DNA of 64,000 nt from Oxynema aestuarii AP17. GTDB taxonomy: Bacteria; Cyanobacteriota; Cyanobacteriia; Cyanobacteriales; Laspinemataceae. Below, piece by piece: positions 28,422 to 45,757 of this stretch. The notes under the pieces were generated by a model. That model had not been told where the DNA came from. It did no database searches and saw only the letters and a program-made list of their open reading frames with translations. Location of the stretch: NCBI RefSeq assembly GCF_012295525.1, contig NZ_CP051167.1:3100001-3164000 (forward strand), in the 5' to 3' direction. A program made the translations under genes and the position numbers. The stretch's first letter is position 1. Each line of letters begins with the position of its first letter.

Positions 28422-29491
28422 TGACTTGACCTCACGCGATGACTGGGGTTTATGCTGCGAGCGAAAGGGTCGGCTTTTGGCTCGGTTGCCGATCGTCGAC
28501 GGCCATTCGGGTTTTGGATCGATCGATTTCTTTGAGAGGCTTCAATCGATCGCCCCTCGAAGTTGCTGGCGATCGCGACCGACTTTGACAACTCTAAAGT
28601 TGTAAATCTCGATCGCTGGAAATGATTTAGTTTTTTGAAGAATTGACGACAAAATGCGATCGAGTCTTCTCCCAATTTCGAGCAAACTGCGATCTCGTAA
28701 CTCACAAATTGACGGCGATCGCGTTGCCTTTCCGAGTCGGGCTGCAAAGTTGGCTGTCACCCTGCTTCGCTCACTTTTCCGATGGGGTTCGGTTGAGACC
28801 TATCGTACTATGAACTTTCGGAAATCAAAAATAAAAAAAACCTTACAAAATCTCCGAGATCGCTCAGTTCGTGCAGGGTAGAGTACCTTGCTCGATCGCG
28901 CGCAAACCGTTGACGGGATTGAGATCTAAACCCTTTTCTAAGAAATCTTGCAAGCCTTGTCAGACAAGGGTTAAAGCGCCGCGATCGCCTCGAATTATTC
29001 TAAGAAATCGTGACATTCGTTACACAAGTTTATGAAACGACCCACTTTTTGAATCTTTGCAACCCAACATGACTCCCCCTCGATTTCCCTCAAAAGCCAA
29101 CTCGTCGATCGCCGGGGCGACCTTGGGATTTTCAAGGGATTGTTAAGCGATTCCAAAAAAACGCTAGAATCAGCAGTAATTCCAGTAGGATTTTTAACAA
29201 GAGAAAAGCAACGCGACGCTCGAAAAAAATGAGAGGTGATTTCAGCCCCCTTTAACTTTTGTCAAGCTCTTAACTCATCCTTAACTGAAGTCGAGCGAAT
29301 TGAGTGTAATTTGAGAGGGATTTACCGGGGGAAATACGGGAAGTTCGCACGGGGGGAAACCCCGAATTGAGAAACCTAAACGTTGCTTTTATGGGCCGAG
29401 CGATCGCCCCGACGACGAAACGGAAATCACCTCGGGCGATCGCGTGGAAACCTTTCGGACACATTGAGACCCCATTGAGGACTGATTGAAT
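28422..29491. promoter_or_regulatory. Shared upstream region of pckA and the hox operon
   Basis: About 1.07 kb separates divergent pckA and hoxE; the short frames within it look like chance. A 15-bp operator-like palindrome, CCTTGTC-A-GACAAGG, lies at 28955-28969. AT-rich runs (28823-28850) and a TTGACG at about 28910 are weak promoter-like elements without a clear -10 partner. In other cyanobacteria hox transcription is controlled by LexA- and AbrB-type proteins from a long leader; their sites could not be assigned here by eye. Confidence 0.5.
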
Positions 29492-30043
29492 ATGCCTTCT
29501 GCTCAGGTAAATAACCGCGATCGCGCGCCGTCGGCGGGATCTAAAGCGGGATCTAAGGCGGGATCGAACGCGCACCCGAGTGGTGACAAGCGCTTCAAAG
29601 TGCTAGACATCACCATGAAGCGCAACCAACACCGTCAAGACGCCTTAATCGAAGTGCTCCACAAAGCCCAAGAAATCTTCGGCTATCTCGAAGAAGACGT
29701 CTTACTCTACGTCGCCCGCCAACTCAAACTCCCCTTGAGTAAAGTCTACGGCGTCGCCACCTTTTACCACCTCTTCTCACTCAAACCCAGTGGCGCTCAC
29801 ACCTGCGTGGTCTGTCTGGGAACTGCCTGTTACGTCAAAGGGGCGAGCAGCTTGCTCGAAGCCCTCAAAAACCAGGTGGGCATCGAGCCGGGAGAAACCA
29901 CCGACAACGGCCAGATGTCCGTGATGACCGCACGTTGTATCGGTGCCTGCGGGCTGGCTCCCGCCGCCGTGTACGACGGTAAAGTCATGGGCAATCAAAC
30001 CGCCGAATCCGTTCTCGACAACATCAAAGGTTGGCTCGACTGA
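29492..30043 (+). CDS. hoxE: Bidirectional hydrogenase diaphorase subunit HoxE
   Basis: The protein has 183 residues from ATG 29492, with GAGG 12 bases upstream. HoxE is the NuoE-like [2Fe-2S] subunit that links the NAD(P)H diaphorase of the [NiFe] hydrogenase to electron carriers. After a poorly conserved N-terminal tail containing [12 protein letters not shown], the thioredoxin-like domain begins near residue 45. Cluster ligands are visible in [11 protein letters not shown] and [11 protein letters not shown], the NuoE pattern C-x4-C and C-x3-C. The N-terminal tail arises from a short DNA direct repeat (GGCGGGATCTAAA-like units at 29536-29570). It is the first gene of hoxE-F-U-Y-CBS-CP12-H. 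Confidence 0.95.
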
Positions 30044-30111: not shown

Positions 30112-31737
30112 ATGGATTTAAACGAATTACTCGAAATTGCCGAAAAAGAACGCCAGCGAGCCGCGAGTGTCCGCATTCGCTGCTGTACCGCAGCCGGATG
30201 TGCTTCCTCCGGAGCCGAAGAAATTAAAGACCGCCTCGAACAAAGCATCAAAGACGCCGGATTGGATAACACCGTCGAAGTCTGTAGCGTCGGTTGCATG
30301 AAATTTTGCGGACGCGGTCCGCTCGTCGAGATCGACATTCCCGGGGTTTTGTATCAACAAGTGAGCGGGGATCAAGTCGAGGCGATCGTCGATGCCCTCA
30401 AACAAAACAAAGCCGCCGAATCCGGGGCCACTCCCCTCGATCGCGAGCACCCCTTTTTCACCCTGCAACAACCGATCGTCCTCGAAAACTCCGGCAAAAT
30501 CAACCCGGAACGCATCGAAGAATATATCGCCGTCGGCGGCTATCAAAACCTCTATCACGTCATCCACGACATGAGCCCGGACGAAGTGGTAGACGAAGTG
30601 ACCCGCAGTGGCTTGCGCGGTCGCGGGGGCGGCGGCTATCCCACGGGCTTGAAATGGGCTACCGTCGCCAAAATGCCCGAAGGGCAAAAATACGTCATCT
30701 GTAACGCCGACGAAGGCGATCCCGGCGCCTTTATGGACCGGTCCGTCCTCGAAAGCGACCCCCACCGGATTATCGAAGGGATGGCGATCGCCGCTTACGC
30801 GATCGGCGCCAACCACGGCTACATCTACGTCCGCGCCGAATATCCCCTCGCCATCAAACGGCTCGAAACCGCAATCAAACAAGCCAAACGCCTCGGCTTG
30901 ATGGGGTCGCAAATCTTCGACTCCCCCTTCGACTTCAAAATCGATATCCGCGTCGGTGCGGGGGCCTTCGTCTGCGGCGAAGAAACCGCCCTGATGCAAT
31001 CGATCGAAGGCGGACGGGGTAACCCGCGCCCGCGCCCGCCCTACCCGGCCCAATCCGGCTTGTGGCATTCGCCGACCTTAATTAACAACGTCGAAACCTT
31101 CGCCAACATTCCGGCGATCGTCCGCGAAGGCGCCGACTGGTTCGCCAGCATCGGCACCGAAAAGAGCAAAGGCACCAAAGTCTTCGCCCTCACCGGAAAA
31201 ATCCGCAATACCGGACTGATCGAAGTCCCGATGGGAATCGCCCTGCGCGAAATCGTCGAAAAAATGGGCGGCGGCGTCCCCCGAGGCGAAGTCAAAGCGG
31301 TACAAACGGGCGGCCCGTCCGGCGGTTGTATTCCCGCCCACTTATTCGATACCCCGGTCGAGTACGACTCCTTAATCCAACTCGGGACGATGATGGGGTC
31401 CGGCGGCATGATCGTGATGGACACGGAAACGAGCATGGTAGACGTGGCTCAGTTCTATATGGAATTCTGCCGGGGGGAATCGTGCGGTAAATGTATCCCC
31501 TGCCGTGCGGGAACGGTGCAGATGTATCAGATGCTGACCAAAATCCTGCGTGGAGAGGCGACCCTTATCGATCTCGAACAACTCGAACGAGTCTGCGGGA
31601 TGGTCAAAGCGACCAGCTTGTGCGGCTTGGGACAAACGGCCCCGAATCCGGTGTTGAGTACGTTGCGCTATTTCCGCGAGGAATATTTGGAACTGCTCAA
31701 AGACAGTCCCAAAGCTCAAGGAGTCGCCAGCCGTTAA
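30112..31737 (+). CDS. hoxF: Bidirectional hydrogenase diaphorase subunit HoxF
   Basis: The 541-residue NuoF-like subunit holds FMN, the NAD(P)H site and iron-sulphur clusters, and exchanges electrons between NAD(P)H and the hydrogenase. The N-terminal 2Fe-2S thioredoxin-like domain (about 20-100) has CCTAAGCASSG and CSVGCMKFCG. The NADH/FMN glycine loop is SGLRGRGGGGYPTGLKW (about 163-179), followed by CNADEGDPGAFMDR. The C-terminal SLBB and 4Fe-4S domain carries ESCGKCIPCRAGT and, later, SLCGLGQTAPNP. GAGG lies about 11 bases before the ATG. It sits 68 bp after hoxE and 36 bp before hoxU, consistent with one transcript. No gene interrupts hoxF and hoxU, unlike some other cyanobacterial hox loci. 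Confidence 0.97.
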   Translation: MDLNELLEIAEKERQRAASVRIRCCTAAGCASSGAEEIKDRLEQSIKDAGLDNTVEVCSVGCMKFCGRGPLVEIDIPGVLYQQVSGDQVEAIVDALKQNKAAESGATPLDREHPFFTLQQPIVLENSGKINPERIEEYIAVGGYQNLYHVIHDMSPDEVVDEVTRSGLRGRGGGGYPTGLKWATVAKMPEGQKYVICNADEGDPGAFMDRSVLESDPHRIIEGMAIAAYAIGANHGYIYVRAEYPLAIKRLETAIKQAKRLGLMGSQIFDSPFDFKIDIRVGAGAFVCGEETALMQSIEGGRGNPRPRPPYPAQSGLWHSPTLINNVETFANIPAIVREGADWFASIGTEKSKGTKVFALTGKIRNTGLIEVPMGIALREIVEKMGGGVPRGEVKAVQTGGPSGGCIPAHLFDTPVEYDSLIQLGTMMGSGGMIVMDTETSMVDVAQFYMEFCRGESCGKCIPCRAGTVQMYQMLTKILRGEATLIDLEQLERVCGMVKATSLCGLGQTAPNPVLSTLRYFREEYLELLKDSPKAQGVASR

Positions 31738-32503: not shown

Positions 32504-33052
32504 ATGGCTAAAATTAGATTGGCAACAATTTGGTTGGGCGGCTGTTCCGGCTGTCACATGTCTTTTCTCGATTTAGACGAATGGCTGTTCGATTTCGCCG
32601 AGAAAGTCGATGTGGTCTTCTCTCCGGTCGGGTCGGACATTAAAGATTATCCCGAAAACGTCGATGTGTGCTTGGTCGAAGGCGCCGTCGCCAACGAGGA
32701 AAACTTGGAGTTACTGCGCGAAGCGCGCCAACGCACGAAATTTTTAATTTCCTTCGGCGATTGTGCGGTGACGGCGAACGTTCCGGCGATGCGCAACATG
32801 CTCGGCGGTAGCGAACCCGTTCTCAAACGCTGTTATTTGGAATTAGGGGACGAACACCCGCAATTGCCCAATTTTCCGGGGATCGTGCCGGAATTGCTCG
32901 ATCGCGTGCGCCCGGTTCACGAAATGGTCGAGGTGGATATGTACATCCCCGGCTGTCCGCCGGACGCCAACCGGATTCGCAAGGCGATCGCCCCCCTGTT
33001 AGAAGGCCAAACCCCCGACATGACAGGACGGGACATGATCAAATTCGGCTAA
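32504..33052 (+). CDS. hoxY: [NiFe] hydrogenase small subunit HoxY
   Basis: The protein has 182 residues from ATG 32504, preceded by GAAGG at 7 bases. The frame continues upstream inside hoxU but that part is out-of-phase overlap. HoxY carries the proximal 4Fe-4S cluster beside the NiFe site: Cys14 and Cys17 in WLGGCSGCHMSFLDLD, then FGDCAVTANVP and PGCPPDAN. The short length without C-terminal cluster domains is typical of the soluble NAD(P)-linked group 3d enzymes. It lies 13 bp after hoxU and 53 bp before the CBS-CP12 gene. Confidence 0.96.
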   Translation: MAKIRLATIWLGGCSGCHMSFLDLDEWLFDFAEKVDVVFSPVGSDIKDYPENVDVCLVEGAVANEENLELLREARQRTKFLISFGDCAVTANVPAMRNMLGGSEPVLKRCYLELGDEHPQLPNFPGIVPELLDRVRPVHEMVEVDMYIPGCPPDANRIRKAIAPLLEGQTPDMTGRDMIKFG

Positions 33053-33105
33053 GTCGGCGCGAACCGCGAACGCCCAGATCCGGGATGCCTTGGAGGGATA
33101 ACGTC

Positions 33106-33732
33106 ATGAAAGCTTCAGAAATTCTCACTCAAAACATCACCACGATCGGCACTTCGGCGACGGTGGTCGAAGCAGTGAGCGCGATGAAAGCGACCGGAGT
33201 CGGTGCCTTGATTGTCGATCGCCGTCACCCAGGGGACGCCTACGGGATCGTCACCCGCAGCGATATCGTCTCGAAAGTGGTAGCCTTCGGCAGAGATCCG
33301 CACCGGGTGCGCGTTTACCAAATCATGACCAAGCCTTGCATCGTGGTCAATCCCGATCTGAGCGTCGAATACGTCGCCCGCTTGTTCGTCCACACGGGGA
33401 TTCAAGTCGCCCCGGTGATTCGAGGCGAATTACTCGGTACGATTTCCATGCGCGACATCCTCGAAAAAAGCGATTTTATCGAAACGCCTTCGGAACTCGA
33501 ACTCGACCGCCAAATCCAAGAGGCGATCGCCCACGCCCGCACGATCTGCGCCGAAGTCGGTCACCCCCCCCGGGAATGCGCGGCAGCTTGGCAGGTCGTC
33601 GAAGAACTGCAAGCGGACGCCGCCCACCAACAGGCGACGGTTTTAGAAAAGACTGCCTTCGAGGAATATTGTGAGGAATATCCGGAAGCGGCAGAACTCG
33701 CCAATTTATATAAAAACTGGTGTAGCGGCTGA
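33106..33732 (+). CDS. CBS-CP12 fusion protein encoded within the hox operon
   Basis: The protein has 208 residues from ATG 33106, with GGAGG 9 bases upstream. Residues 1-125 hold two CBS motifs ([47 protein letters not shown] and GTISMRDIL), an adenylate-binding Bateman module. Residues 136-208 are a CP12 domain: [22 protein letters not shown] with Cys148 and Cys158, the core [15 protein letters not shown] (160-174), and [14 protein letters not shown] with Cys189. The second cysteine of the C-terminal CP12 pair is replaced by Leu198; another cysteine is at 206. CP12 binds phosphoribulokinase and GAPDH in a redox-dependent way; CBS-CP12 fusions are a known cyanobacterial family. Position between hoxY and hoxH suggests a link between adenylate or redox state, carbon fixation and hydrogenase expression (inference). 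Confidence 0.92.
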
Positions 33733-33796: not shown

Positions 33797-35227
33797 ATGT
33801 CTAAAACAGTTGTCATCGATCCGGTCACGCGCATCGAAGGACACGCGAAAATCTCCATCTATCTCGACGACGCCGGAGAAGTTGAAGACGCCCGCTTCCA
33901 CGTGGTCGAATTTCGCGGCTTCGAGAAATTCTGCGAAGGACGTCCGATGTGGGAAATGGCCGGGATTACCGCCCGCATTTGCGGGATCTGCCCGGTGTCT
34001 CACTTACTGGCCTCGGCGAAAACTGGAGATAAAATCCAAGCGGTGACCATTCCCCCCGCCGGGGAAAAACTGCGCCGGATGATGAATTTGGGACAAATTA
34101 CCCAATCTCACGCCCTCTCTTTCTTCCACTTGAGCAGTCCGGACTTTCTCCTCGGTTGGGATAGCGACCCCGCCACCCGCAACGTCTTCGGCTTGATGGC
34201 TGCGGATCCGGATTTAGCCCGCAGTGGCATCCGCCTGCGCCAATTCGGCCAAAAAGTCATCGAATTGCTCGGCGCCAAGAAAATTCACCCGGCGTGGGCC
34301 GTTCCCGGGGGGGTGCGATCGCCCCTGAGTGAAGAAGGACGCGCCTGGATCCGCGATCGCCTCCCGGAATCGCGCCAAACCCTCAACACCGCCTTAGACC
34401 TCTTTAAATCCCTCCTGGATCAATTAGACACGGAAGTTAAAACCTTCGGCGAATTTCCCTCCCTGTTCATGGGATTGGTCGCCAAAGACGGCACCTGGGA
34501 ACATTACGGCGGTCATATCCGCTTTAAAGATAGCCAAGGCAACATCGTCGCCGACGGACTGAGTGAAGACAACTATCGCGACTACCTCGGCGAAGCGGTC
34601 GAACCCTGGTCTTATCTGAAATTCCCCTATTACAAACCGATGGGTTATCCCGACGGTATTTATCGGGTCGGTCCACTGGCGCGCTTGAATATCTGCGATC
34701 GCATGGGAACGGAAGCGGCGGATCGCGAATTGCAAGAATTCCGCGATCGCGCCGGAGGCGTGGCGACCTCTTCGTTCTTCTACCACTACGCCCGCCTGGT
34801 AGAAATTCTAGCCGCCCTCGAACGGATCGAACGCTTGGTCGAAGACCCGGATATCGTCTCCAAACGCACCCGCGCCAGTGCGGGGGTGAACAGTCTCGAA
34901 GGCATCGGCGTCAGCGAAGCCCCTCGGGGAACCTTATTCCACCACTATCAGGTAGACGAAAACGGTTTGATTAAGAAGGTCAACCTGATTATTGCCACGG
35001 GTCAAAATAACTTGGCGATGAATAAAACTGTCGCCCAAATTGCCAAGCATTACATCCACGGTAACGAAATTCCCGAAGGCTTGCTCAACCGCGTCGAAGC
35101 CGGAATCCGCGCTTTCGACCCCTGTTTGAGCTGTTCGACCCACGCCGCCGGACAAATGCCGATCCACCTGCAGTTAGTGGCCCGCGACGGCGCGATCGTC
35201 GATGAGGTCTGGCGCGATCCCGTGTAA
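33797..35227 (+). CDS. hoxH: [NiFe] hydrogenase large subunit HoxH
   Basis: The 476-residue catalytic subunit holds the NiFe(CN)2CO centre. Ligands are Cys62 and Cys65 in [11 protein letters not shown] and Cys443 and Cys446 in DPCLSCSTH. The 27 residues after His449 ([10 protein letters not shown] through VWRDPV) form the C-terminal extension that the maturation protease removes after nickel insertion; its gene, hoxW, lies at 45281. The ATG at 33797 was chosen because [18 protein letters not shown] is the conserved N-terminus; an upstream start at 33671 would overlap the CBS-CP12 gene. It is 64 bp after the CBS-CP12 gene and closes the hox operon. Confidence 0.97.
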
Positions 35228-35426: not shown

Positions 35427-36335
35427 ATGGTTCAATTCGAGAAAGGCGGACAAATTGCATGGTTTCACGATGAAGGTCACTCCGCAGGCTTTTTTCACAC
35501 CTACGATCGCCTCCAGGTCGGCGGGGATGGCGACGCCCCCCGCAAGATCCATGTATTTCTCCCTCGGGAATACGAAACCGTCGTCGATGAATATCCCGTT
35601 ATTTATATGAACGATGGCGATACGGCCTTTTTCCGGGGCGGGGCGATCGGTCAGTCGTGGTGGACCGGGGAAACCCTCGGCGAACTCTACAAGCGCAATG
35701 CGATCGCCCGCGTCATCGTCGTCGCCATCTACGCCCTCAACCGCGATCGCGAATATACCCACGAACCCGCCGTCCCGCGCTGGATCCGACAGGTAGACTG
35801 TTGCGGCGTCGAGGCATATACCCAATATCTGGCCGATGCTCTCAAACCCTTTATCGATCGCAGCTATAGGACGATCCCCGATCCGCGCCAAACGACGATT
35901 ATGGGATCGTCTCACGGCGGCTTGGCTGCGTTTTACAGCGCCTGTCGCCGTCCCGATGCTTTTGGCAATGCGGCGGCCCTTTCCCCGTCGTTTTGGGTCG
36001 GACTCGACACGGGAACCGATACCTTTTTACCCTTGCATAAATCGAGTTTACTCGAACTGACGGCGCCGACATTGGGCGATCGCGACCGCCGCCCTCGCTT
36101 GTGGCTGGATTGGGGATTACGCAAAGACGAAGGCTTTCACAATTGGTTTATCGAGAACAACACTGTCAAACGCGGGCGCGAAATGGCCGAATTATTGCGC
36201 GAACAGTTCGGTTACGTCCTCGGTCGCGATTTGTGGACTTACGAAGATCCCGAGGGGGAACATTCGGAGGAATCCTGGGCCCGTCGTCTACCTTTAGTTC
36301 TGCAAGCCCTTTACGGCAATGGCGATCGCCCGTAA
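35427..36335 (+). CDS. Putative alpha/beta-hydrolase esterase (esterase D-like)
   Basis: The 302-residue protein has the putative-esterase fold related to esterase D and enterochelin esterase. Features are KIHVFLPREYE near 40-50, VIYMNDGDTAFF, the nucleophile elbow GSSHGGLAAF near residues 160-169, and LWLDWGLRKDEG, an acidic region where the catalytic Asp is expected. The histidine is probably in GEHSEESWARRLPLVLQAL near the C-terminus, as in the family. There is no signal peptide, so it acts in the cytoplasm. It follows hoxH by 199 bp on the same strand, but the gap contains GGGAGT-type short repeats and it may have its own promoter. The substrate is unknown. Confidence 0.82.
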   Translation: MVQFEKGGQIAWFHDEGHSAGFFHTYDRLQVGGDGDAPRKIHVFLPREYETVVDEYPVIYMNDGDTAFFRGGAIGQSWWTGETLGELYKRNAIARVIVVAIYALNRDREYTHEPAVPRWIRQVDCCGVEAYTQYLADALKPFIDRSYRTIPDPRQTTIMGSSHGGLAAFYSACRRPDAFGNAAALSPSFWVGLDTGTDTFLPLHKSSLLELTAPTLGDRDRRPRLWLDWGLRKDEGFHNWFIENNTVKRGREMAELLREQFGYVLGRDLWTYEDPEGEHSEESWARRLPLVLQALYGNGDRP

Positions 36336-36835: not shown

Positions 36836-37105
36836 ATGAAAGACAAAGAAAATCTATATTTATGCATGGGTTCCGCCTGCCACCAAATGGGTGTTTATGA
36901 AGTCTTACCCAAATTGCAAACCTTGATCGCCCAATACGAGTTAGACAATCGAATCGAACTGAAAGGTTCCTTTTGTTTGGAAACCTGTAGTGAAGGAATT
37001 GTCATGAAATTCAAAGACAAAATCTTCATTAAAATCAATGCAGACAATATCGAAGCAAAATTTAAAGATGAAATTTTGCCCAACATTCAACAAGCGATTG
37101 ACTAG
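36836..37105 (+). CDS. Small [2Fe-2S] thioredoxin-like ferredoxin
   Basis: The 89-residue protein resembles the C-terminal cluster domain of NuoE/HoxE. Cys10 and Cys15 (LYLCMGSACHQMG) and Cys47 and Cys51 (SFCLETCSEG) form a C-x4-C and C-x3-C set that would bind a [2Fe-2S] cluster. There is no helical NuoE N-terminal domain, so it is a free-standing electron carrier or redox sensor. It is followed 12 bp later by a PAS protein and then by a SpoIIE-type phosphatase. Similar small 2Fe-2S proteins accompany PAS and SpoIIE genes in [FeFe]-hydrogenase operons of anaerobic Firmicutes and Thermotogae. The gene is AT-richer than hox, with lysine-rich codon use, suggesting transfer. Confidence 0.88.
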   Translation: MKDKENLYLCMGSACHQMGVYEVLPKLQTLIAQYELDNRIELKGSFCLETCSEGIVMKFKDKIFIKINADNIEAKFKDEILPNIQQAID

Positions 37106-37117
37106 AGGACGCGATCG

Positions 37118-37624
37118 ATGAACGTCAACGATAAAAATTTGTGGGAAATTCTGTGGCAGTACGACCCTAATGCTTTAGTCGTAGTGGATACGGAGTTTAA
37201 AATTGCAGTAGTCAATCCGGCTTTTTGCAAAATGTTTGCAGTGGAAACATCGGAGGCGATCGGACGAGAGGCGATCGAGATTTTAGGCGAGATCGAAGAC
37301 TTCAAAACCGTTTGGAAAACCCAAGACGTGATTCGCGGTAAAGAGCGAGAATACAGCGATCGCGGTTTGTACGTCAAGCAAGTCATTTTCCCGATTCAAG
37401 ACCGGGAATTAATCGCCTGCATCATGGTCGATATTACCGAAGAACTCCAACGCAAAAAAGAAATGATCCGTTTCAAAACCGAAACTGTCGCCAAAGTCAA
37501 CGAAGTGGTCGATAACCAGATGAAAGTTGCCCAAGAAATTGCCGGACTCCTCGGCGAAACGACCGCCGAAACCAAAGTCAGCCTGTTAAAAATCATCAAA
37601 ATGATCGAACAGGAAAATGTTTGA
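37118..37624 (+). CDS. PAS-domain protein with conserved C-terminal helix (hydrogenase-operon type)
   Basis: The 168-residue protein has one PAS domain (about 8-108: WEILWQYDPNALVVVDTEFKIAVVNPAFCKMF, then the closing VKQVIFPIQDRELIACIMVDITEE). A long amphipathic C-terminal helix follows (about 118-168), containing VDNQMKVAQEIAGLLGETTAETKVSLLKI. That helix closely recalls the C-terminus of PAS proteins encoded with [FeFe] hydrogenases in Firmicutes, where an extra 4Fe-4S region is often present; none is seen here. Cys37 is a possible sensing residue. There is no kinase or DNA-binding output, so it probably signals through the phosphatase gene 57 bp downstream. No ligand can be assigned. Confidence 0.85.
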   Translation: MNVNDKNLWEILWQYDPNALVVVDTEFKIAVVNPAFCKMFAVETSEAIGREAIEILGEIEDFKTVWKTQDVIRGKEREYSDRGLYVKQVIFPIQDRELIACIMVDITEELQRKKEMIRFKTETVAKVNEVVDNQMKVAQEIAGLLGETTAETKVSLLKIIKMIEQENV

Positions 37625-37681
37625 CCTGGATTCCGCTTTTCAAAACGATCGCATCCCATAGAAACATCTTTAATCAAAAAA

Positions 37682-38842
37682 ATGGATAACTTTTTTGATA
37701 TCGCCCAATTCAGTTTAAACAAAAAAGGAGAAGAACTCTGCGGCGATCGCATTCAATATCGCAAAACCGCAGAGAAAACAACGATCGTCCTTTCCGACGG
37801 ATTGGGGAGTGGCGTTAAAGCAAACATTCTCGCCAGTTTGACGACTGAAATCTTAATTAACATGCTGAACGCCGACGTTCCGTTAGAAGAAGTCATCAAA
37901 ACCGTCATCGGAACCTTACCGATCTGTCAAGTCAGAAAAATTGCTTACGCTACCTTCACGATTATTCAAATCGAGCATAACACTGATAACTTTAAAGTCA
38001 TTAACTTTGACAATCCCCCAGTTTTTTATTTTAAAAAAGGCAAATTAATTCAACTCGAAAGTAAAACGGAGAAGATCTTAGATAAAAAGATCGCGATCGC
38101 CGAAGGAACCGTCGAACGCGGTGACTTTCTCGGGGCGATTAGCGACGGCGTCCTCTACGCCGGATTGGGGGTCGCTTTAAATTTTGGGTGGGGATGGGAT
38201 AACATTGCTAAATACCTACAAAACTTATTTTTCAACCAAACCCATACGGCGCGCAATATCGTGCAGAAAGTCATTGGTGAAACCAACCGTCTCTACGGTG
38301 GAAAAATTGGGGACGATGCCAGTTTTGTAGGCTTGTACGTCCGCCAACGCAATCCTTTGATTATTTTTACCGGACCGCCCTTAGAGAAAAGTAAAGATCG
38401 CGACTACGTCGAGCAGTTTCTGAACTTTGAAGGTCGCAAAGTGGTCTGTGGAGGAACCACGGGAAACATCGTGGCTAAATATTTGGGAGAAACGGTAGAA
38501 ATGGATATTTCGACGATGAGAAAAGATCTGCCACCCATCGGTAAATTAACTCCACTGAATTTAGTGACCGAAGGAATTTTAACGATTTCGACCGCATCGC
38601 AAATTTTAAAGAAATGTCAGTGCGATCTCGATCGCCTTCCCGGGGACAATAATGGGGCGGTGATGTTAGCCCGAGAAATTTTAGAAGCAGACTCGATCTT
38701 CTTTTTAGTCGGGCAGAAAATCAATGAATTTTATCAAAATCCTTTACTTCCTAAAAATATTTCGATTCGCAAGAACTTAATTGAAGAATTAGTACAGTAT
38801 TTACGCGAAAAGCAGAAAGAAGTGAGTATTGAATACTGTTAA
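37682..38842 (+). CDS. SpoIIE-family serine phosphatase linked to hydrogenase genes
   Basis: The 386-residue protein has an N-terminal PPM/SpoIIE phosphatase domain (about 1-222). The metal-binding acids are in place: Asp22 (CGDRIQ), Asp39 (VLSDGLGSG), Asp155 (AISDGVLYAG) and Asp211-Asp212 (KIGDDASFVGLYV). About 160 more residues follow (IIFTGPPLEKSKDRDYVEQFLNFEGRKVVCGGTTGNIVAKYLG and onward), a region also present in SpoIIE-type proteins of Firmicute hydrogenase operons. No PAS or response-regulator domain is fused, so input probably comes from the PAS protein just upstream. It closes the ferredoxin-PAS-phosphatase trio. GC content is lower than in hox or pha, and only a few HIP1 octamers are present. 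Confidence 0.88.
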   Translation: MDNFFDIAQFSLNKKGEELCGDRIQYRKTAEKTTIVLSDGLGSGVKANILASLTTEILINMLNADVPLEEVIKTVIGTLPICQVRKIAYATFTIIQIEHNTDNFKVINFDNPPVFYFKKGKLIQLESKTEKILDKKIAIAEGTVERGDFLGAISDGVLYAGLGVALNFGWGWDNIAKYLQNLFFNQTHTARNIVQKVIGETNRLYGGKIGDDASFVGLYVRQRNPLIIFTGPPLEKSKDRDYVEQFLNFEGRKVVCGGTTGNIVAKYLGETVEMDISTMRKDLPPIGKLTPLNLVTEGILTISTASQILKKCQCDLDRLPGDNNGAVMLAREILEADSIFFLVGQKINEFYQNPLLPKNISIRKNLIEELVQYLREKQKEVSIEYC

Positions 38843-39737: not shown

Positions 39738-40835
39738 CTATTCGCTACGAGCGGTTAACCAATCTACGATCGTAGGGGGTAAATCCCGTTGTACCTTCCC
39801 ACTAACATACATGCCGATATGTCCCACGGGGAAAGAATGAACCGTATAATCGTCAGTGCCGACATACTTTTCGAGCGCCAAAGACGACTCCGGCGGAACT
39901 AAATGATCCTTCTCGGCATATAGGTTCAAAATCGGCATTTTCAGGTTATTTAAGTTCACCTTGCCCTCGCCGATCTCGATCTCCCCTTTAATCAGTTTGT
40001 TTTGCTGGTAAAACTCTTTAAGAAACTGTCGGTAAGCTTCTCCCGCTTGGTCCGGACTGTCGAAAATCCACTTCTCCATCCGCAAGAAGTTGAGAACCTT
40101 ATCTTCGCTGCCCGCAATTTCGGGAAAATCGAGGTATTTTTGAATTCCGAGTTGCCGGGGTTTGAGCATTAAAAACTCTAAATTGAGAAAATCCCCCGGA
40201 ATATTGCCCAACGCCTCCACCATCAAATCGATATCGAGGGCCTCGGAGCCCAGGCTACATCCTCCCCGCATGTTGAGCAAGGCTTTGGGCATGTAAAAAT
40301 CAACCGGAGCGACCATCACGATCAAGTTTTTGACTTTCTCCGGATACAGGGAACTGTAACAGAGACTGAAAGTGCCTCCCTGACAGATCCCCAACAGGTT
40401 AATTTTGTCCAACTCGTGTTTCTGGCGAATGGCATCGACGCAGTTATTGATATAACCGTTAATATAATCGTCGAGGGTCAACCAGCGATCGGCACGGGTG
40501 GGATAGCCCCAGTCGATCAAATAAACATCCAAGCCTAACTTGAGTAAATTGGCGACTAAAGAACGATTTTCCTGCAAATCGACCATAAAGGGGCGATTGA
40601 CTAGAGCGTAGACAATCAGGACGGGGATACCCAGGGGTTTTTCCACCGCAGGCTGAAAGCGGTACAAGACGACCTTGTCTTCTTTGTAGACCACTTCTTT
40701 TGGCGTCACGCCAATTTCGATATCTTCTTCGCGCAAGCTACTTAAGTTTTCGATGCCTTTGAGCAGTTTTTTGGTGAGTTCGGCATACTCGTGGGTGGCA
40801 TCTTCCAAGCGCATTTGCGTCAAAAATGGCAGCAT
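39738..40835 (-). CDS. phaC: Class III poly(3-hydroxybutyrate) synthase subunit PhaC
   Basis: The protein has 365 residues from ATG 40835; the frame continues upstream into phaE in another phase and is not expected to be used. PhaC polymerises 3-hydroxybutyryl-CoA. The lipase-like box is LGICQGGTFSLCY with nucleophile Cys151; Asp310 (YAEKDHLVPP) and His339 (PVGHIGMY) complete the triad. Length and sequence are those of class III synthases, which need PhaE. It is the last gene of phaA-phaB-phaE-phaC, 130 bp after phaE. That gap includes a purine-rich stretch and HIP1 sequence but no clear promoter. Confidence 0.95.
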   Translation of the reverse strand: MLPFLTQMRLEDATHEYAELTKKLLKGIENLSSLREEDIEIGVTPKEVVYKEDKVVLYRFQPAVEKPLGIPVLIVYALVNRPFMVDLQENRSLVANLLKLGLDVYLIDWGYPTRADRWLTLDDYINGYINNCVDAIRQKHELDKINLLGICQGGTFSLCYSSLYPEKVKNLIVMVAPVDFYMPKALLNMRGGCSLGSEALDIDLMVEALGNIPGDFLNLEFLMLKPRQLGIQKYLDFPEIAGSEDKVLNFLRMEKWIFDSPDQAGEAYRQFLKEFYQQNKLIKGEIEIGEGKVNLNNLKMPILNLYAEKDHLVPPESSLALEKYVGTDDYTVHSFPVGHIGMYVSGKVQRDLPPTIVDWLTARSE

Positions 40836-40965
40836 AACTCTCGCTACTCCGTGCAGTAATTGCCAACATGGTTTCGGGATACCGCGCTGAGGGAAGGGTG
40901 GATGAGGAGCTTTGGGGCGATCTTGGGCGGGGGGCGATCGCCCAAAGCTCCCCCTCCGAGTGCGG

Positions 40966-41970
40966 CTAGGGTTCGGGTTGCTCCCGACTCTCGGATTTCG
41001 CCAAGGCTTTTTTGAGCTGCTTGACTTCCTTGCGCAGTTCGTAGATGCTCTTGTGGATTTCATCGACTTCACTGCGCAGTGGCACGTTCATCGTTTTTAA
41101 AGACAGTTCCATCAGCTCTTGCTGTTGGATGCGGTAGGTATTGAGGGCGTTGAGGAATTTGCCGCGAATTTTGAGATTGTCCTCGCGACAGAAGGCTTCT
41201 TCAAACACGCCATCGGAAACCTGACTCCACAGAAGTTGAAACTGCCGCCAGTCTTCGACCTTTTCGCCTTGTTCAGCTAAAGACACCAATTCCTTCATTA
41301 AGACTTCAAAGGAGCGCACTTGGATGTCTGCGAGGACGAGCTGGTAGTTGATACTCGCTTTATACAGTTCGGTCCACGCATCGAAACCGGAGACGAGTTT
41401 GCCGTTAAATTCGCGGGTCGGGCCGAGAACGGGACTCTTCATCAAGCTGCCGAAGCTTTCCTCGTACAGGAGATTCCAGTAGAGGTTGTTGAGTTCGATC
41501 GAGGCGGAAGGGTTCCCCGTGACCGCTTTACCCATCGTACCGAGGGATAAGCCCAACGGATCGAACCAAAGTTGGCTGAACTTTTGCATCTCGCGGATGT
41601 AAAGCTGCCACAATTCGGCGATATCTTTGTTGGCGTTGAGGCTGCCCTCGGAAAAACTGGCCAACTGGTCGCGCATTTGTTCGGCATACTGGTTTAAGGT
41701 TTGCTGCCAGTTGCCCCCGGATGCGACTTGGGGAAAAATATCTTTCCAGGCATCGACGGAGAGTTTGAGAAAACGCACGTACACGTCCTGATTTTCTGCA
41801 ACTCTCTCGGTGAATTTGTTCAATTCGGCTTTAGAGTCGGACAGGGGTTGTCCGGAAGGGATCGAACCGACCAACTCGAACCAGCTTTGCCACATCTTCG
41901 TCCCGGTCTCGGACCAGGTGTTGACGAGCTCGGTGGCTACGTCACTCCAGTGAGTTTTTTCTTTATCCAT
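40966..41970 (-). CDS. phaE: Class III PHB synthase subunit PhaE
   Basis: The 334-residue helical partner of PhaC begins MDKEKTHWSDVATELVNTWSETGTKMWQSWFELVG. It contains the family-typical FDPLGLSLGTMGKAVTGNPSAS and GPTREFNGKLVSGFDAWTELYKAS segments. It ends in a coiled coil (about 300-328, VDEIHKSIYELRKEVKQLKKALAKS). PhaE activates and organises PhaC on the granule. No catalytic residues are expected. It lies 48 bp after phaB on the same strand. In model unicellular cyanobacteria phaA-phaB and phaE-phaC form separate operons; here they are joined. Confidence 0.94.
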   Translation of the reverse strand: MDKEKTHWSDVATELVNTWSETGTKMWQSWFELVGSIPSGQPLSDSKAELNKFTERVAENQDVYVRFLKLSVDAWKDIFPQVASGGNWQQTLNQYAEQMRDQLASFSEGSLNANKDIAELWQLYIREMQKFSQLWFDPLGLSLGTMGKAVTGNPSASIELNNLYWNLLYEESFGSLMKSPVLGPTREFNGKLVSGFDAWTELYKASINYQLVLADIQVRSFEVLMKELVSLAEQGEKVEDWRQFQLLWSQVSDGVFEEAFCREDNLKIRGKFLNALNTYRIQQQELMELSLKTMNVPLRSEVDEIHKSIYELRKEVKQLKKALAKSESREQPEP

Positions 41971-42018
41971 CTTGATTGCCTCAATTCTGTTTGGCGCATT
42001 GCGAATTACGAATCGAGT

Positions 42019-42741
42019 TTAGGTATGATGGGCTCCGTTGACGCGCAGGACTTCTCCAGAAACGTAGCTGCTGGCGACTGGAGAGAGGAGGTAGGCCACG
42101 GCCCAGGCGATATCTTCCGGTTCGCCGAAGCGACGGAAGGGGATTTCGGCGGTGATTTTGTCTTTGACTTTGTCGGGGAGAAATTTGGTCATTTCGGTGT
42201 TGATGAAGCCGGGGGCGATCGCGTTGGCCCGAACCCCATAACGGGCGGCTTCGCGGGCGAGGGATTTGATTAAACCGATGACGGCGGCTTTGGTGGCGGC
42301 GTAGTTGGTTTGTCCGGCGTTGCCGCGATCGCCCGAAATCGAACTGATGCCGACGATTGCCCCGGCGCCGCGATCGTACATCCCTTGAACGAACGGTTTG
42401 ATCGTATGGTTGACCCCTTTGAGGTTGACGTTAATCACCGCATCCCAGTCGGCGTCAGTCAGTTTATTGAAGAAGTTATCCCGAGTAATCCCCGCATTGG
42501 CGACCACGCCGTAAACTGGGCCTAATTTCTCTTCAATTTCTCGAGCGGCGGCTTCCATCGACCCTAAATCGGTCACGTCCGCTTTGACGGCTAAGGCGCC
42601 ACTGTCGGAGTCGTCAATTTCGATATCCGTATAAGCGACTTTAGCGCCTAACTCGGTTAACAAGGTGACGATCGCTTTCCCGATGCCGCGATTGCCACCC
42701 GTGACCACAATGACTTTATCTTCTAATCCTAGAGAGACCAT
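42019..42741 (-). CDS. phaB: Acetoacetyl-CoA reductase PhaB
   Basis: The protein has 240 residues from ATG 42741, with AAGGA 11 bases upstream; an upstream start at 42783 would add 14 residues before the conserved opening. This short-chain dehydrogenase reduces acetoacetyl-CoA to (R)-3-hydroxybutyryl-CoA, normally with NADPH. It has the cofactor motif TGGNRGIGKAI (14-24), NAGITRDN (82-89), catalytic Ser134, Tyr147 and Lys151 (GISSISGDRG, then NYAATKAA), and the C-terminal GYVSGEVLRVNGA-like ending. The FabG-like family is broad, but the position between phaA and phaE makes PhaB the clear reading. The step consumes reducing power, which fits the neighbouring hydrogenase. Confidence 0.94.
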   Translation of the reverse strand: MVSLGLEDKVIVVTGGNRGIGKAIVTLLTELGAKVAYTDIEIDDSDSGALAVKADVTDLGSMEAAAREIEEKLGPVYGVVANAGITRDNFFNKLTDADWDAVINVNLKGVNHTIKPFVQGMYDRGAGAIVGISSISGDRGNAGQTNYAATKAAVIGLIKSLAREAARYGVRANAIAPGFINTEMTKFLPDKVKDKITAEIPFRRFGEPEDIAWAVAYLLSPVASSYVSGEVLRVNGAHHT

Positions 42742-42814
42742 AATTGTTACTGTCCTTAAATTTCTGGATCGAACCGGGGGCATCGCGTCGCGACGCTCCC
42801 GGTCGGTTGTCGGG

Positions 42815-44005
42815 CTACACTCGTTCTAAGGCGATCGCCGTTCCTCCCCCGGTACCGTGGCACAAGGCGGCCAGTCCTCGGCTGCTATCCCGTTCTTGCA
42901 AGGCATTGAGCAAGGTGACGACAACCCGCGCCCCAGACGCCCCGATCGGGTGTCCGAGGGCGATCGCCCCACCGTGAACGTTGAGTCGATCGTGAGACAC
43001 GCCGAGCATCTTGTTAAACAGCAAGTTACTCACGGCAAACGCCTCGTTATTCTCAAACAAGTCGAAATCGGAAACCTCCATCTCCAGTTTCGCCAGCAGC
43101 TTCTTGCTCGCATGGATGGGAACTTCCGGGAAACGCCAACTCTCCCCTCCCGCAAAACTGCCGCCCAACACTTTCGCCAGGGGTTTGAGTCCGTGGCGTT
43201 CCACCGCCGCCGCACTGGCGACCACCAACGCCGCCGCCCCATCGCTGATCTGACTGCAATTGCCCGCCGTCAATACTCCATCCGCTTTAAACGCCGGACG
43301 TAACTTACTCAAACTCTCGGCAGTCGTCCCGGCGCGAATGCCTTCGTCGGTATCGATCTGCTGGGTTTCCTTTTTCACCCGTACCGCGATCGGCACAATT
43401 TCTTTTTTGAAAATGCCGCTTTCGGTCGCTTCCGCAGCCCGTTGTTGGGAATAGGCGGCCACTTCGTCTAACGCTTGGCGGCTAAAACCGTGCTCGGCAG
43501 CGAGTCGCTCGGTTTGCTCGCCCATCCCCTCACCTGTGGTCGAATCCGTGAGACCGTCGTGAATGAGTAAATCTGTGAGCGGTTCTGGCGCGCCCAACAG
43601 GGTTTTATAGCCCCACCGCGCTCGCGCCGAGAGGAAAAAGCCCGCTTGGGACATCGATTCCATACCCCCCGCCAGAACTAAATCTGCTTCTCCAGCACGA
43701 ATCGCCGTCACGGCGTTGGTCAGGGCGATCATCCCCGAGGAGCAAACCATATCCACTGCATACCCGTCCACCGTTGGGGGAATGCCCGCTTTTAACGCCG
43801 CCTGACGGGGTAATAACTGTCCGTGTCCTCCCCGTAAGACATTCCCTAAAATATAAAGGTCGAGGGCATCTCCGGAAATTCCAGCTCGCTCTAGCGCGGC
43901 GGCGATCGCGTGAGTTCCGAGTTCGACGGGAGACAGAGCGGATAGAACGCCTCCAAAACGACCGAGGGGGGTCCGTACTGCCGAAACAATATAGGCTTCC
44001 TGCAT
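42815..44005 (-). CDS. phaA: Acetyl-CoA acetyltransferase (beta-ketothiolase) PhaA
   Basis: The 396-residue enzyme condenses two acetyl-CoA to acetoacetyl-CoA, the first step of PHB synthesis. The thiolase residues are in place: Cys88 (VDMVCSSGMIAL), His352 (GGAIALGHPIGASG) and Cys382 (ALCHGTGGGTAIAL). The ATG at 44005 is preceded by AGGA at 7 bases and by about 1.27 kb without an assigned gene, which should hold the promoter of the whole phaABEC run. It lies 73 bp before phaB. Confidence 0.96.
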   Translation of the reverse strand: MQEAYIVSAVRTPLGRFGGVLSALSPVELGTHAIAAALERAGISGDALDLYILGNVLRGGHGQLLPRQAALKAGIPPTVDGYAVDMVCSSGMIALTNAVTAIRAGEADLVLAGGMESMSQAGFFLSARARWGYKTLLGAPEPLTDLLIHDGLTDSTTGEGMGEQTERLAAEHGFSRQALDEVAAYSQQRAAEATESGIFKKEIVPIAVRVKKETQQIDTDEGIRAGTTAESLSKLRPAFKADGVLTAGNCSQISDGAAALVVASAAAVERHGLKPLAKVLGGSFAGGESWRFPEVPIHASKKLLAKLEMEVSDFDLFENNEAFAVSNLLFNKMLGVSHDRLNVHGGAIALGHPIGASGARVVVTLLNALQERDSSRGLAALCHGTGGGTAIALERV

Positions 44006-45280
44006 AAATAATCCTGATTGAAAAACGATACAAACTTAGAAGAATACGAAGTTAGCCACAAGGAAAAACGAGAGGGGATCTGCGAACAAAGACCCTCTTC
44101 GGGAAACAAATTCATTCGCGATCGAGGTCGCTATCGAAATACAAATCTTCGATTGAGTGCATGAGTTAAGCGATCGCAGATCGACCAAAAAAAACATCGT
44201 CGTTGTTTCTCGTCCTCGTCCACTTCCGGCAGCAAAATTCGCCGCCTTTTCTCTTAGAAAAATTGAGTAAACTTGGCTTCATTCGCTCTAGCTCGATCCC
44301 AGTCTGATGGGATGCACTGACTGTCTGAACTGGGTGGAAGTCCCTTACGACTTTTCCCTGTGTTTTTCCCCGTGACTCTTGACGAGACTTGCACTAGCTA
44401 CATATTTATGATTTTTCTTGTTTTTCTACGTCCAGACACTCGGTAGGTCGTAGATCTTCAGGCAGGTTACCCGCCTTTAATGCGATCGGGAAATCTCCTT
44501 GTTAGGGTTGACCGAGGAATCGCTCGTGAAGCGGTTAGTTGCGAACTCACCCATACAGCTTTCTTTTTATCCGGGATATGGCTTTGACATTTCTGCTACT
44601 CCCCGATTGACGACTTAGGTAGCTTCCCCTCCTCAGACTGGAGTGGGAAAAGGAAGTCGCCGAGGGGAAAGACCGCCATTCCACGGTCAGATCCGATCGC
44701 CGGGATAAGGCTTGAGTCTCTTCCTTCCGACTTCACTGGGATAATTGTCCCTCCGTTTGCTCTTTAAGAGGGGTGTTCTTTATCTTTTTTTTAGAGATAC
44801 CGTTTCTGAAAAGATGACGGAATCCCTGGAAAGATCTGTATATATTTCCGCCTTCTGTCCCTAGCTCGGATTCGGCGCATCGTTGATGACAGGAAATCTT
44901 GCAAATGCGGACAAAATCTGGTGCTTATGGAAAATCGAACCTTTTCAAGTCCTCTACTACAGAAATCTAAATCCTTTACGCTGCTTAACAAAAAATTCAA
45001 GATTCGTGGCGGCGATCGCCCCCGCTCAACCCCTATCGCAGCCTGGGGGGAATACCCCTTCGAGGGAAGTTTCAAAAATGAGAACAATAAATTTTAAGTC
45101 TAAAAATCTTATAAAAATGTAAAATAATCACCCTAAAAAGATAGGGAGTTTGATAAATTAAAACTGAAATCGACCATAACTTTCAAATAGGTAGACGACC
45201 TAGAAACAGGTCGATCTTAAAAATGTGAAAATTCGATCGCTCCGTTCTCAAGTTTCCGTTCTCAAGTTAAAGTGTCCCCC
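44006..45280. other. Unassigned 1.27-kb region between phaA and hoxW
   Basis: Divergent promoters for phaA and hoxW are expected here. The middle (about 44290-44760) is poor in HIP1 and carries several short complementary arms: AGGC/GCCT around GGTTACCC near 44460, CTTCC/GGAAG and CCCCTC/GAGGGG near 44620-44670, and GACCG/CGGTC at 44671-44688. A T-rich run (TTCTTTATCTTTTTTTT) follows at about 44775. This looks more like structured RNA or a decayed mobile element than coding DNA. No family could be named. The right part is AT-rich. Confidence 0.4.
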
Positions 45281-45757
45281 ATGCAAATTTCGATCGTCGG
45301 TTACGGTAATACTTTGCGCGGTGATGACGGCGTAGGACAAAAAATCGCACAAATTATCGAATCGTGGAACCTACCCGACGTGCGATCGCTGGCTCTCCAC
45401 CAATTAACCCCCGAACTCGCCGAAGAATTAGCCCGGGTAGACTTAGCTGTGTTTGTCGATGCCTATCCGGCACAAAACAACACGGAGCGTGTCAAGGTTG
45501 CGGAGATCGCCCCCGGGGGCGATCGGGTCAACTCCCCGAGTTTAGGGCATACCGGGGATCCGCGTTGGATCTTGGGACTGGCCCAAACCCTTTACGGATC
45601 CTGTCCCGAAGCCTGGTGGATTCTCGTTCCGGGATGGGATTTCAATTTTGGCGATCGCCTCTGTGAGAACTGCGATCGCGCCGCCACCGAAGCCATCCAC
45701 ATCATCGAAACCCTGCTCCGCGATCGGGAGGACAACTCATGCACGAAGTCAGTTTGA
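45281..45757 (+). CDS. hoxW: Hydrogenase maturation endopeptidase HoxW
   Basis: The protein has 158 residues from ATG 45281; a GTG at 45272 would add three residues. HoxW removes the C-terminal extension of HoxH once nickel is in place. Family features are GYGNTLRGDDGVGQ with acidic Asp15-Asp16, Asp60 in VFVDAY and His90 in SLGHTGDP, the residues that sense nickel in HybD-type proteases. It is 10 kb away from hoxH but overlaps hypA by 19 bp, so it is translated with the maturation genes. Confidence 0.94.
   Translation: MQISIVGYGNTLRGDDGVGQKIAQIIESWNLPDVRSLALHQLTPELAEELARVDLAVFVDAYPAQNNTERVKVAEIAPGGDRVNSPSLGHTGDPRWILGLAQTLYGSCPEAWWILVPGWDFNFGDRLCENCDRAATEAIHIIETLLRDREDNSCTKSV

What the first reader, a model, noticed from the sequence alone, without database searches (positions are those of the whole stretch)
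36836..38842. Ferredoxin/PAS/SpoIIE trio of the [FeFe]-hydrogenase type beside a [NiFe] Hox hydrogenase
Seen: three genes in tandem (12- and 57-bp gaps) encode a C-x4-C/C-x3-C 2Fe-2S protein, a PAS protein with a VDNQMKVAQEIAGLLGETTAE helix and a SpoIIE phosphatase with intact metal-binding acids plus an extra C-terminal region. Known: similar gene sets accompany electron-bifurcating [FeFe] hydrogenases in Firmicutes and Thermotogae. Inference: a redox-sensing phosphatase relay, possibly acquired from an anaerobe, has been rewired to the cyanobacterial hox locus. This is the best candidate in the window for an undescribed system. What the phosphatase acts on is unknown; the STAS protein at 1211 and unlinked STAS proteins are candidates.
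Basis: partly seen in the sequence, partly recalled or inferred. Interest (0 to 1): 0.82.

Follow-up and report, generated by a model that had tools for sequence, protein, structure and literature searches.

The report
Hydrogenase-linked phosphatase switch in cyanobacteria
Three neighbouring genes beside a cyanobacterium's hydrogen-handling enzyme look like a stripped-down version of a hydrogen-sensing protein switch known from fermenting bacteria, with the hydrogen-sensing part missing, and the set accompanies that enzyme in many cyanobacterial families, which suggests an undescribed regulator of it.

Summary
The trio is real, at the stated coordinates, and under purifying selection in relatives. 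The PAS protein matches the C-terminal PAS plus helix of HydS, the sensory [FeFe] hydrogenase linked to a phosphatase (HydDB group C3; Hfs/HydS operons), without the H-cluster domain. The small [2Fe-2S] protein and the 386-aa SpoIIE phosphatase match the other two genes of those operons.

In 388 Cyanobacteriia genomes, PAS and SpoIIE occur in the same 27, and all 27 carry HoxH (HoxH overall 127 of 388). In 18 of the 27, SpoIIE lies within about 5 kb of hoxH; in 9 it is far away or on another contig. The commonest order is hoxH-fdx-PAS-SpoIIE-hoxW. One close relative has only a decayed remnant, another none, both with hox kept.

The SpoIIE tree joins cyanobacteria with other PAS-only modules (Armatimonadota, KSB3, Chloroflexota, Verrucomicrobiota, Acidobacteriota). 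A cyanobacteria-plus-Bacillota grouping without these is rejected.

Most likely function: a redox- or H2-status-dependent Ser/Thr phosphatase switch for Hox-linked dark/anoxic metabolism. Signal, complex and substrate are inferred, not shown. The STAS protein at 1211 sits beside another SpoIIE phosphatase, so it is a weak candidate target. New variant of a known kind.

The parts
36836..37105 (+). fdx: 89-aa thioredoxin-like [2Fe-2S] protein, like the small protein upstream of HydS
   Evidence: ORF; PF01257 4.1e-05, just under cut-off; C10, C15, C47, C51 invariant in 8 incl. Clostridia and in 40 of 40 other cyanobacterial genomes aligned
37118..37624 (+). PAS adaptor: PAS fold (about residues 8-105) plus one predicted 60-residue helix (107-166) carrying the QMKVAQEIAGLLGETTAETK motif; equals the C-terminal part of HydS
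   Evidence: same 27 of 388 genomes as SpoIIE
37682..38842 (+). HfsC-type phosphatase: SpoIIE/PP2C domain (residues 1-223) and a conserved unannotated C-terminal domain (224-386)
   Evidence: PF07228 2.2e-15; AF2 model pLDDT 90.3; PDB 5ucg Z 24.6, rmsd 2.7, 213 aligned
38351..38839 (+). C-terminal domain of the phosphatase (GPP, CGGTT, TEG motifs)
   Evidence: motifs in 31 sequences; no Pfam family above cut-off; only match in the genome at E up to 1
29486..30043 (+). hoxE
   Evidence: NF005747 7.3e-84
30112..31737 (+). hoxF
   Evidence: PF01512, PF10589
31774..32490 (+). hoxU
   Evidence: NF005745 8.8e-129
32504..33052 (+). hoxY
   Evidence: PF01058; start chosen by me inside the ORF
33797..35227 (+). 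hoxH
   Evidence: PF00374; start chosen by me inside the ORF
45272..45757 (+). hoxW maturation protease; directly follows the trio in most relatives seen, displaced here by the pha block
   Evidence: name from memory; no Pfam match at 0.001; homologue of about 36-60% identity follows the trio in relatives

Best explanation
The trio is a PAS-only (H-cluster-less) branch of the hydrogenase-linked HydS/phosphatase signalling module, kept as a regulator of the cyanobacterial Hox hydrogenase. Shown: homology of all three genes to the HydS operon, absence of the H-domain, intact phosphatase residues, purifying selection, co-occurrence with hox. Inferred: the [2Fe-2S] protein reports the redox state of Hox or its ferredoxin/NAD(P)H partners; the PAS protein, as a dimer on its long helix, takes that signal and docks in trans on the phosphatase in place of the usual fused linker; the phosphatase then removes phosphate from a serine or threonine of another protein, perhaps a STAS anti-anti-sigma factor, and so sets expression of hox and fermentation genes in dark or anoxic conditions.
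For: The PAS protein aligns with the last ~165 aa of HydS and shares the GETTAETK helix (10 helix residues invariant in 39 of 39). The phosphatase is homologous end to end, 37-41% to Clostridia. SpoIIE in 27 of 388 Cyanobacteriia, PAS in the same 27, HoxH in all 27 against 127 of 388 overall (hypergeometric 1e-14; by genus 18 of 18 against 72 of 160, 1.5e-7). In the 9 carriers where SpoIIE is not near hoxH, fdx, PAS and SpoIIE are all still present. Of 8 PAS-only genomes outside cyanobacteria, 8 have a Hox-type HoxH or an [FeFe] hydrogenase. PAS model: PAS plus a single 60-residue helix. Precedent: in T. saccharolyticum deleting hfsA or hfsB raises ethanol yield, deleting hfsC or hfsD does not (PMC5707799 passages); in R. 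albus the cluster with the sensory hydrogenase showed the largest change, 111-fold, in co-culture, which the authors attribute to H2 level (PMC6776011 passages). A PAS-helix control of a PPM phosphatase is proposed for RsbP (PMC12143880 passages).
Against: No signal, complex or substrate was tested. 100 of 127 HoxH genomes in the sample lack the set, so Hox works without it, and one Laspinema relative has only a decayed remnant with hox kept. Four of the eight PAS-only sets outside cyanobacteria have no detectable fdx by them. The hypergeometric test treats related genomes as independent. 5 of the 9 separated cases rest on different contigs of drafts; in G627 the contig ends about 0.8 kb upstream of fdx, so linkage there is not excluded. 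The docking model is by analogy only.
Confidence: 0.52

Rival explanations
1. Autonomous redox or oxygen sensor: the PAS domain itself binds a cofactor or uses its conserved Cys37, and the trio controls a fermentation regulon of which hox is only one member; Hox is not the signal source.
For: Cys37 is kept in 40 of 40 other cyanobacterial genomes aligned but present in only one HydS-type row of the alignment. Outside cyanobacteria, PAS-SpoIIE pairs lie near NfnAB-like genes (L063 by Pfam, L066 by eye) and a Rex-like gene (L066) rather than by hydrogenases. The PAS model resembles LOV, FixL and NifL PAS domains.
Against: Confinement to HoxH-bearing cyanobacteria (27 of 27) and the usual place inside the hox gene set. 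A shared PAS fold does not identify a ligand.
Confidence: 0.27
2. Direct post-translational control: the phosphatase acts on Hox subunits or maturation proteins themselves rather than on a transcription pathway.
For: Close spacing to hoxH and hoxW, and SpoIIE next to hoxW without hoxH in G052 and G160.
Against: No phosphorylated Hox residue was examined; bacterial PPM phosphatases such as SpoIIE and RsbU act on STAS proteins (PMC11418112 abstract and passages); Hfs effects include transcript changes.
Confidence: 0.11
3. The small [2Fe-2S] protein is an electron-transfer subunit of Hox, and the PAS-phosphatase pair is a separate regulator that shares the gene set.
For: In G190 fdx stays with hoxH while PAS and SpoIIE are on other contigs; fdx weakly resembles part of HoxE.
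Against: fdx also stays with PAS and SpoIIE in 5 fetched stretches without hox genes and with HydS in Clostridia.
Confidence: 0.08
4. Neutral passenger genes carried with the hox cluster, without function.
For: Patchy distribution and absence or decay in close relatives of carriers (G297, G003).
Against: dN/dS 0.02-0.13 and retention of all three genes when scattered.
Confidence: 0.02

Closest known systems
Phosphatase-linked sensory [FeFe] hydrogenase module, HydDB group C3 (HydS of Ruminococcus albus; TM1420-TM1422 of Thermotoga maritima by literature)
   Same: Same gene order fdx-(HydS)PAS-SpoIIE, same C-terminal PAS helix, same two-domain phosphatase in R. albus and other Clostridia (HydDB table in PMC5037454). 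That the R. albus protein is a HydDB C3 member is my inference; Thermotoga was not compared
   Different: No H-cluster domain and no CGSCGYxTC motif; linked to [NiFe] Hox instead of [FeFe] hydrogenase; a distinct LWxLLWxYDPN-like start of the PAS protein
hfsABCD of Thermoanaerobacterium saccharolyticum
   Same: Reported as PAS hydrogenase HfsB, serine-phosphatase-like HfsC and a fermentation-regulating phenotype (PMC5707799 and PMC11837493 passages)
   Different: No HfsB hydrogenase half and no HfsD beside the cyanobacterial set. Hfs sequences themselves were not compared here
RsbP/RsbU partner-switching phosphatases
   Same: PAS sensor, helical linker and PPM phosphatase as the working parts (PMC12143880 passages)
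   Different: PAS-helix and phosphatase are separate proteins here, no STAS or kinase in the gene set (with one possible exception, G513), and an extra C-terminal domain on the phosphatase
Known hox regulators LexA and cyAbrB1/2
   Same: Act on hox expression (PMC4463661, PMC13421787 passages)
   Different: Transcription regulators; no phosphatase module is mentioned in the passages seen

Membership tests
Group C3 sensory [FeFe] hydrogenase (HydS) | H-cluster domain (PF02906) | tested here: not met
   PAS protein lacks it; no PF02906 match at 0.001 in G000
Group C3 sensory [FeFe] hydrogenase (HydS) | C-terminal PAS with conserved helix | tested here: met
Group C3 sensory [FeFe] hydrogenase (HydS) | Adjacent Ser/Thr phosphatase of the two-domain type | tested here: met
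Group C3 sensory [FeFe] hydrogenase (HydS) | Senses H2 | not testable with these tools
   biochemistry needed
SpoIIE/PPM phosphatase | PP2C fold and family score over cut-off | tested here: met
SpoIIE/PPM phosphatase | Metal-site acids intact | tested here: met
   (ligand assignment recalled)
RsbU/V/W-type partner switch | Cognate STAS and HATPase genes in the same gene set | tested here: not met
   In G000 the nearest STAS and HATPase_c_2 matches are about 35 and 38 kb from the trio. The genome's own 9 STAS and 5 short HATPase proteins as blast queries against 47 stretches with the trio or its relatives gave one free-standing STAS match (L239, 1.6 kb before hoxE), matches of SulP-transporter size in two stretches and no HATPase match at 1e-5; more distant ones would be missed
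RsbU/V/W-type partner switch | Phosphatase dephosphorylates a STAS protein | not testable with these tools
   substrate assay needed
Hox gene set component | Conserved position by hoxH in many lineages | tested here: met
   18 of 27 carriers within about 5 kb; 29 of 38 over
Hox gene set component | Co-transcription with hox | not testable with these tools
   RNA data needed; promoter scan at chance level

The most novel reading that the evidence does not exclude
Cyanobacteria use a hydrogen-sensing phosphatase relay in which the catalytic Hox [NiFe] hydrogenase itself has taken over the sensing role of the missing H-cluster domain: the [2Fe-2S] protein carries Hox redox state to a free PAS-helix adaptor, which switches a two-domain phosphatase whose unannotated C-terminal domain adds a second input. 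The PAS-helix would be a general plug that accepts different sensor heads (H-cluster domain, Cache-HAMP-receiver chain as in L087, or a separate enzyme).
Probability: 0.22. Interest if true: 0.82.

Novelty: new variant of a known kind. Interest (0 to 1): 0.6.

Why it matters
How cyanobacteria adjust Hox, their route for dumping or recovering electrons as H2, is known mainly through transcription regulators studied in Synechocystis. A conserved phosphatase module inside the hox gene set of other families would add a signalling layer to that picture, and would show how the signalling half of a sensory hydrogenase system can be used beside an unrelated hydrogenase. It gives a concrete three-gene knockout target.

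Tried and rejected
Firmicute origin: a cyanobacteria-plus-Bacillota clade without the other PAS-only rows was rejected (the Bacillota rows were chosen after the tree was seen). STAS at 1211 as the target: it has a neighbouring SpoIIE phosphatase; not excluded. Fold of the C-terminal phosphatase domain: the PDB profile search gave nothing better than E 0.051, and the structure searches were filled by the PP2C half. One row, 3ke6 (RsbU and RsbW domains of Rv1364c, Z 22.2, 273 residues aligned, model range 2-379), reaches into the C-terminal domain; I did not follow it, and the fold of that domain remains untested on its own. Viral contigs: no relative. Promoter and terminator scan: at or below chance. 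Literature: the listings of searches (some capped) showed no paper that by title or abstract start describes this set at cyanobacterial hox, and the passages seen in PMC3858816, PMC2674450 and PMC5186783 do not mention it; most subscription journals are not in the library and supplements were not read, so this is not proof of absence. Zheng et al. 2014 on R. albus was not held and is known to me only through citing papers.

Mended on checking: an earlier count of 67 of 74 loci with a HydA-like match included the H-domain of HydS itself; one search gives 45 of 74 with a separate one. The 43 rows hold 3 repeats, 40 genomes.

Rows dropped: the SpoIIE tree used 69 rows after thinning by me: 6 of 18 f47 loci kept, about a third of L077-L134 plus a few kept, 5 Laspinema-type copies left out, L127 left out for a stop. 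The HoxH tree left out 4 Laspinema-type rows, labels two non-cyanobacteria with PAS-SpoIIE but no fdx as without the trio, and is weakly supported; its best tree needs 9 changes of the trio label, 4 forced by starred branches. In the PAS search at most 9 candidates per genome were scored. dN/dS used six of seven Laspinema-type copies.
Full report
Observation. Domain searches give a thioredoxin-like [2Fe-2S] protein (just under the cut-off), a PAS protein and a SpoIIE phosphatase.

What the parts are. Aligned with the HydS proteins of Monoglobus and Ruminococcus albus, the PAS protein covers only the last ~165 residues: it has the PAS and the terminal helix and lacks the hydrogenase domain and the CGSCGYxTC motif before the PAS. 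The helix is the best conserved part: Q134, M135, I141, A142, L145, G146, E147, T149, A150 and K153 are invariant in 39 of 39 sequences from several phyla. The [2Fe-2S] protein aligns with the small proteins upstream of HydS. The phosphatase aligns end to end with those downstream of HydS, including a C-terminal domain with GPP, CGGTT and TEG motifs. AlphaFold models are confident for the phosphatase (pLDDT 90.3) and the PAS protein (89.9); the latter is a PAS domain and one 60-residue helix. The phosphatase half matches SpoIIE of B. subtilis (5ucg, Z 24.6, rmsd 2.7 over 213 residues). The C-terminal domain has no Pfam match above cut-off and one match in the genome.

Where it occurs. In the first ten relatives with all three genes the order is hoxEFUYH-fdx-PAS-SpoIIE in 10 of 10, followed by hoxW in 8 and by hypA and hypB in 6. 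The window differs by an esterase gene before and a pha block after the trio; it is not alone in having inserts, since Okeania (L056) and G475 (L238) have about 2 and 3.5 kb between hoxH and fdx, and Microseira (L057) has hoxW about 6 kb away. Among 388 Cyanobacteriia, SpoIIE is in 27 (E at or below 1e-50), PAS in the same 27 (weakest E 3.1e-50, no other genome at 1e-20 or better), HoxH in 127 including all 27. 18 of the 27 have SpoIIE within about 5 kb of hoxH. Of the other 9, four (G052, G160, G225, G556) have it 0.6-1.4 Mb away on the same contig and five (G190, G403, G566, G600, G627) on another contig; in G627 the contig ends about 0.8 kb upstream of fdx. In G403, G556, G566, G600 and G627 the triplet is intact. 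In the four f13 genomes the genes are split: hoxH-fdx-PAS with SpoIIE elsewhere (G225), hoxH-fdx with PAS and SpoIIE on other contigs (G190), fdx-PAS and SpoIIE apart (G052, G160); all three genes are present in each. In 16 loci fetched later, the triplet is complete in 16, beside hoxH in 11, with hoxW after it in 10 of those. fdx was found in all 25 of the 27 carriers whose DNA was read; G399 and G414 were judged from coordinates only. Over Cyanobacteriia genomes with handles carry full-length SpoIIE, 29 with it within about 5 kb of hoxH, all 38 with HoxH. Two Spirulinaceae carry the triplet beside hoxW-hypAB with hoxEFUYH on another contig. Against: 100 of 127 HoxH genomes lack it; G297, of the same genus as the carriers G290 and G196, has hoxH directly before hoxW; G003 keeps hox but has only a remnant with frame breaks and the first fdx cysteine gone.

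Selection. Nei-Gojobori dN/dS over 15 pairs of six Laspinema-type genomes is 0.02 (SpoIIE), 0.13 (PAS), 0.08 (fdx) and 0.03 (hoxH).

Outside Cyanobacteriia. Of 80 loci from named genomes (the best 80 of at least 576), 74 are not cyanobacterial: PAS upstream of SpoIIE in 74, H-domain in 62, a small [2Fe-2S] gene in 62, a separate HydA-like gene in 45 and a HoxF-like gene in 11 of the fetched stretches. 12 lack the H-domain. Three of these (L074, L130, L133) are at contig edges; L087 has the PAS-helix on a Cache-HAMP-receiver protein. Eight are PAS-only: Armatimonadota (L060, with a radical SAM/BATS gene nearby, HydE/HydG-like by recall), KSB3 (L064, before a HydCBA-like set), an Ilyobacter-labelled bin (L067, before a HydA-like gene), Planctomycetota (L107, before hoxE/F/U-like genes), and, without a detectable fdx, Chloroflexota (L061, L066), Verrucomicrobiota (L063) and Acidobacteriota (L065). 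Whole-genome searches: Hox-type HoxH without [FeFe] in the Ornatilinea and Verrucomicrobia bins; both in the Acidobacteriales and Anaerolineaceae bins; [FeFe] in the Armatimonadota, KSB3, Ilyobacter-labelled and Planctomycetota bins, of which the last two also have weaker HoxH matches; the Desulfomonile bin (L087) has no PF02906 match and one partial HoxH match. The four cyanobacteria in the same searches (both Spirulinaceae, Okeania, Microseira) have HoxH and no PF02906 match. So the PAS-only form goes with either hydrogenase type, but hydrogenases are common and no background rate was measured outside cyanobacteria.

Ancestry. The SpoIIE tree puts 21 cyanobacterial rows together (99/100), next to L060 (94/85), inside a 27-row group (100/98) and a 28-row group (97/93), all of PAS-only type; Bacillota rows lie outside. 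Cyanobacterial and most other PAS-only rows share Trp9, Trp13 and Tyr15 at the start of the PAS protein, with exceptions. The two f47 loci fetched have the HydS type, and f47 sits on a long branch. The root is not known, so whether the H-domain was lost or gained cannot be decided; two planctomycete loci with and without it (L071, L107) show that it changes.

Mechanism. Shown: homology, intact catalytic residues, co-occurrence, selection. Inferred: that the [2Fe-2S] protein reads redox state, that PAS docks on the phosphatase through its helix, and that the substrate is a phosphoprotein of a transcription pathway. The docking idea rests on RsbU/RsbP, where a helical linker controls the phosphatase (PMC12143880 passages); here the linker is on a separate protein. 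The regulatory idea rests on Hfs and HydS results in T. saccharolyticum and R. albus (PMC5707799, PMC11837493, PMC6776011 passages). HydDB lists group C3 as phosphatase-linked, putative, role undetermined (PMC5037454). Membership in C3 fails because the H-domain is absent; that lowers 'it is a C3 hydrogenase', not 'it works like its signalling half'.

Target. The genome has 9 STAS matches over cut-off and five short HATPase_c_2 proteins. The STAS at 1211-1645 is beside a different SpoIIE phosphatase (35-1036) and near a HATPase_c_2 and a STAS gene just outside the window, which looks like a self-contained partner switch. Of 47 stretches with the trio or its relatives, one (G513, L239) has a STAS gene 1.6 kb before hoxE, 54% identical to the STAS at G000:C1:4949624: a single case, but a lead.

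Verdict. A real, conserved, hox-associated gene set, most likely regulatory; new variant of the HydS-phosphatase module. Interest 0.6: a specialist would not expect the signalling half of a sensory [FeFe] hydrogenase inside cyanobacterial hox gene sets, but the function is inferred.

Noticed in passing
33085-33732: A CBS-CP12 protein gene sits between hoxY and hoxH, as also in G321 (L169) and G475 (L238), and near hoxW or hyp genes in L055 and L225; a possible Calvin-cycle link to hox.
   Followed up: partly
47506-50247: Acyl-CoA synthetase-like protein (CoA-binding, ligase and ATP-grasp domains) fused to an acetyltransferase; a homologue follows hoxW in L216 and L217 and lies near hoxE in L242.
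   Followed up: partly
35-1645: A second SpoIIE phosphatase beside a STAS gene, with HATPase_c_2 and STAS genes just left of the window: probably a separate partner switch.
   Followed up: partly
39738-44005: pha-type gene block between the trio and hoxW, not found by blast between these genes in the relatives' trio loci fetched (gene names recalled).
   Followed up: no
35427-36335: Esterase-family gene between hoxH and the trio, not found there in the relatives fetched.
   Followed up: no
L239:85-360: STAS gene 1.6 kb before hoxE in the trio-bearing genome G513, 54% identical to a STAS protein of the window's genome (G000:C1:4949624); possible substrate lead.
   Followed up: partly
L065:5550-6668: Acidobacteriales relative whose phosphatase lost three conserved acids (D39S, D155G, D211N) but keeps the C-terminal domain; maybe a pseudophosphatase or a sequence problem.
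   Followed up: partly
L087:1736-4036: Cache-HAMP-receiver-PAS protein ending in the same helix motif, upstream of the phosphatase: another sensor head on the same plug.
   Followed up: partly
L063:1724-4187 and L066:3888-8461: NfnAB-like genes near PAS-SpoIIE in Verrucomicrobiota (Pfam) and Chloroflexota (by eye), and a Rex-like gene directly upstream of PAS in L066.
   Followed up: partly
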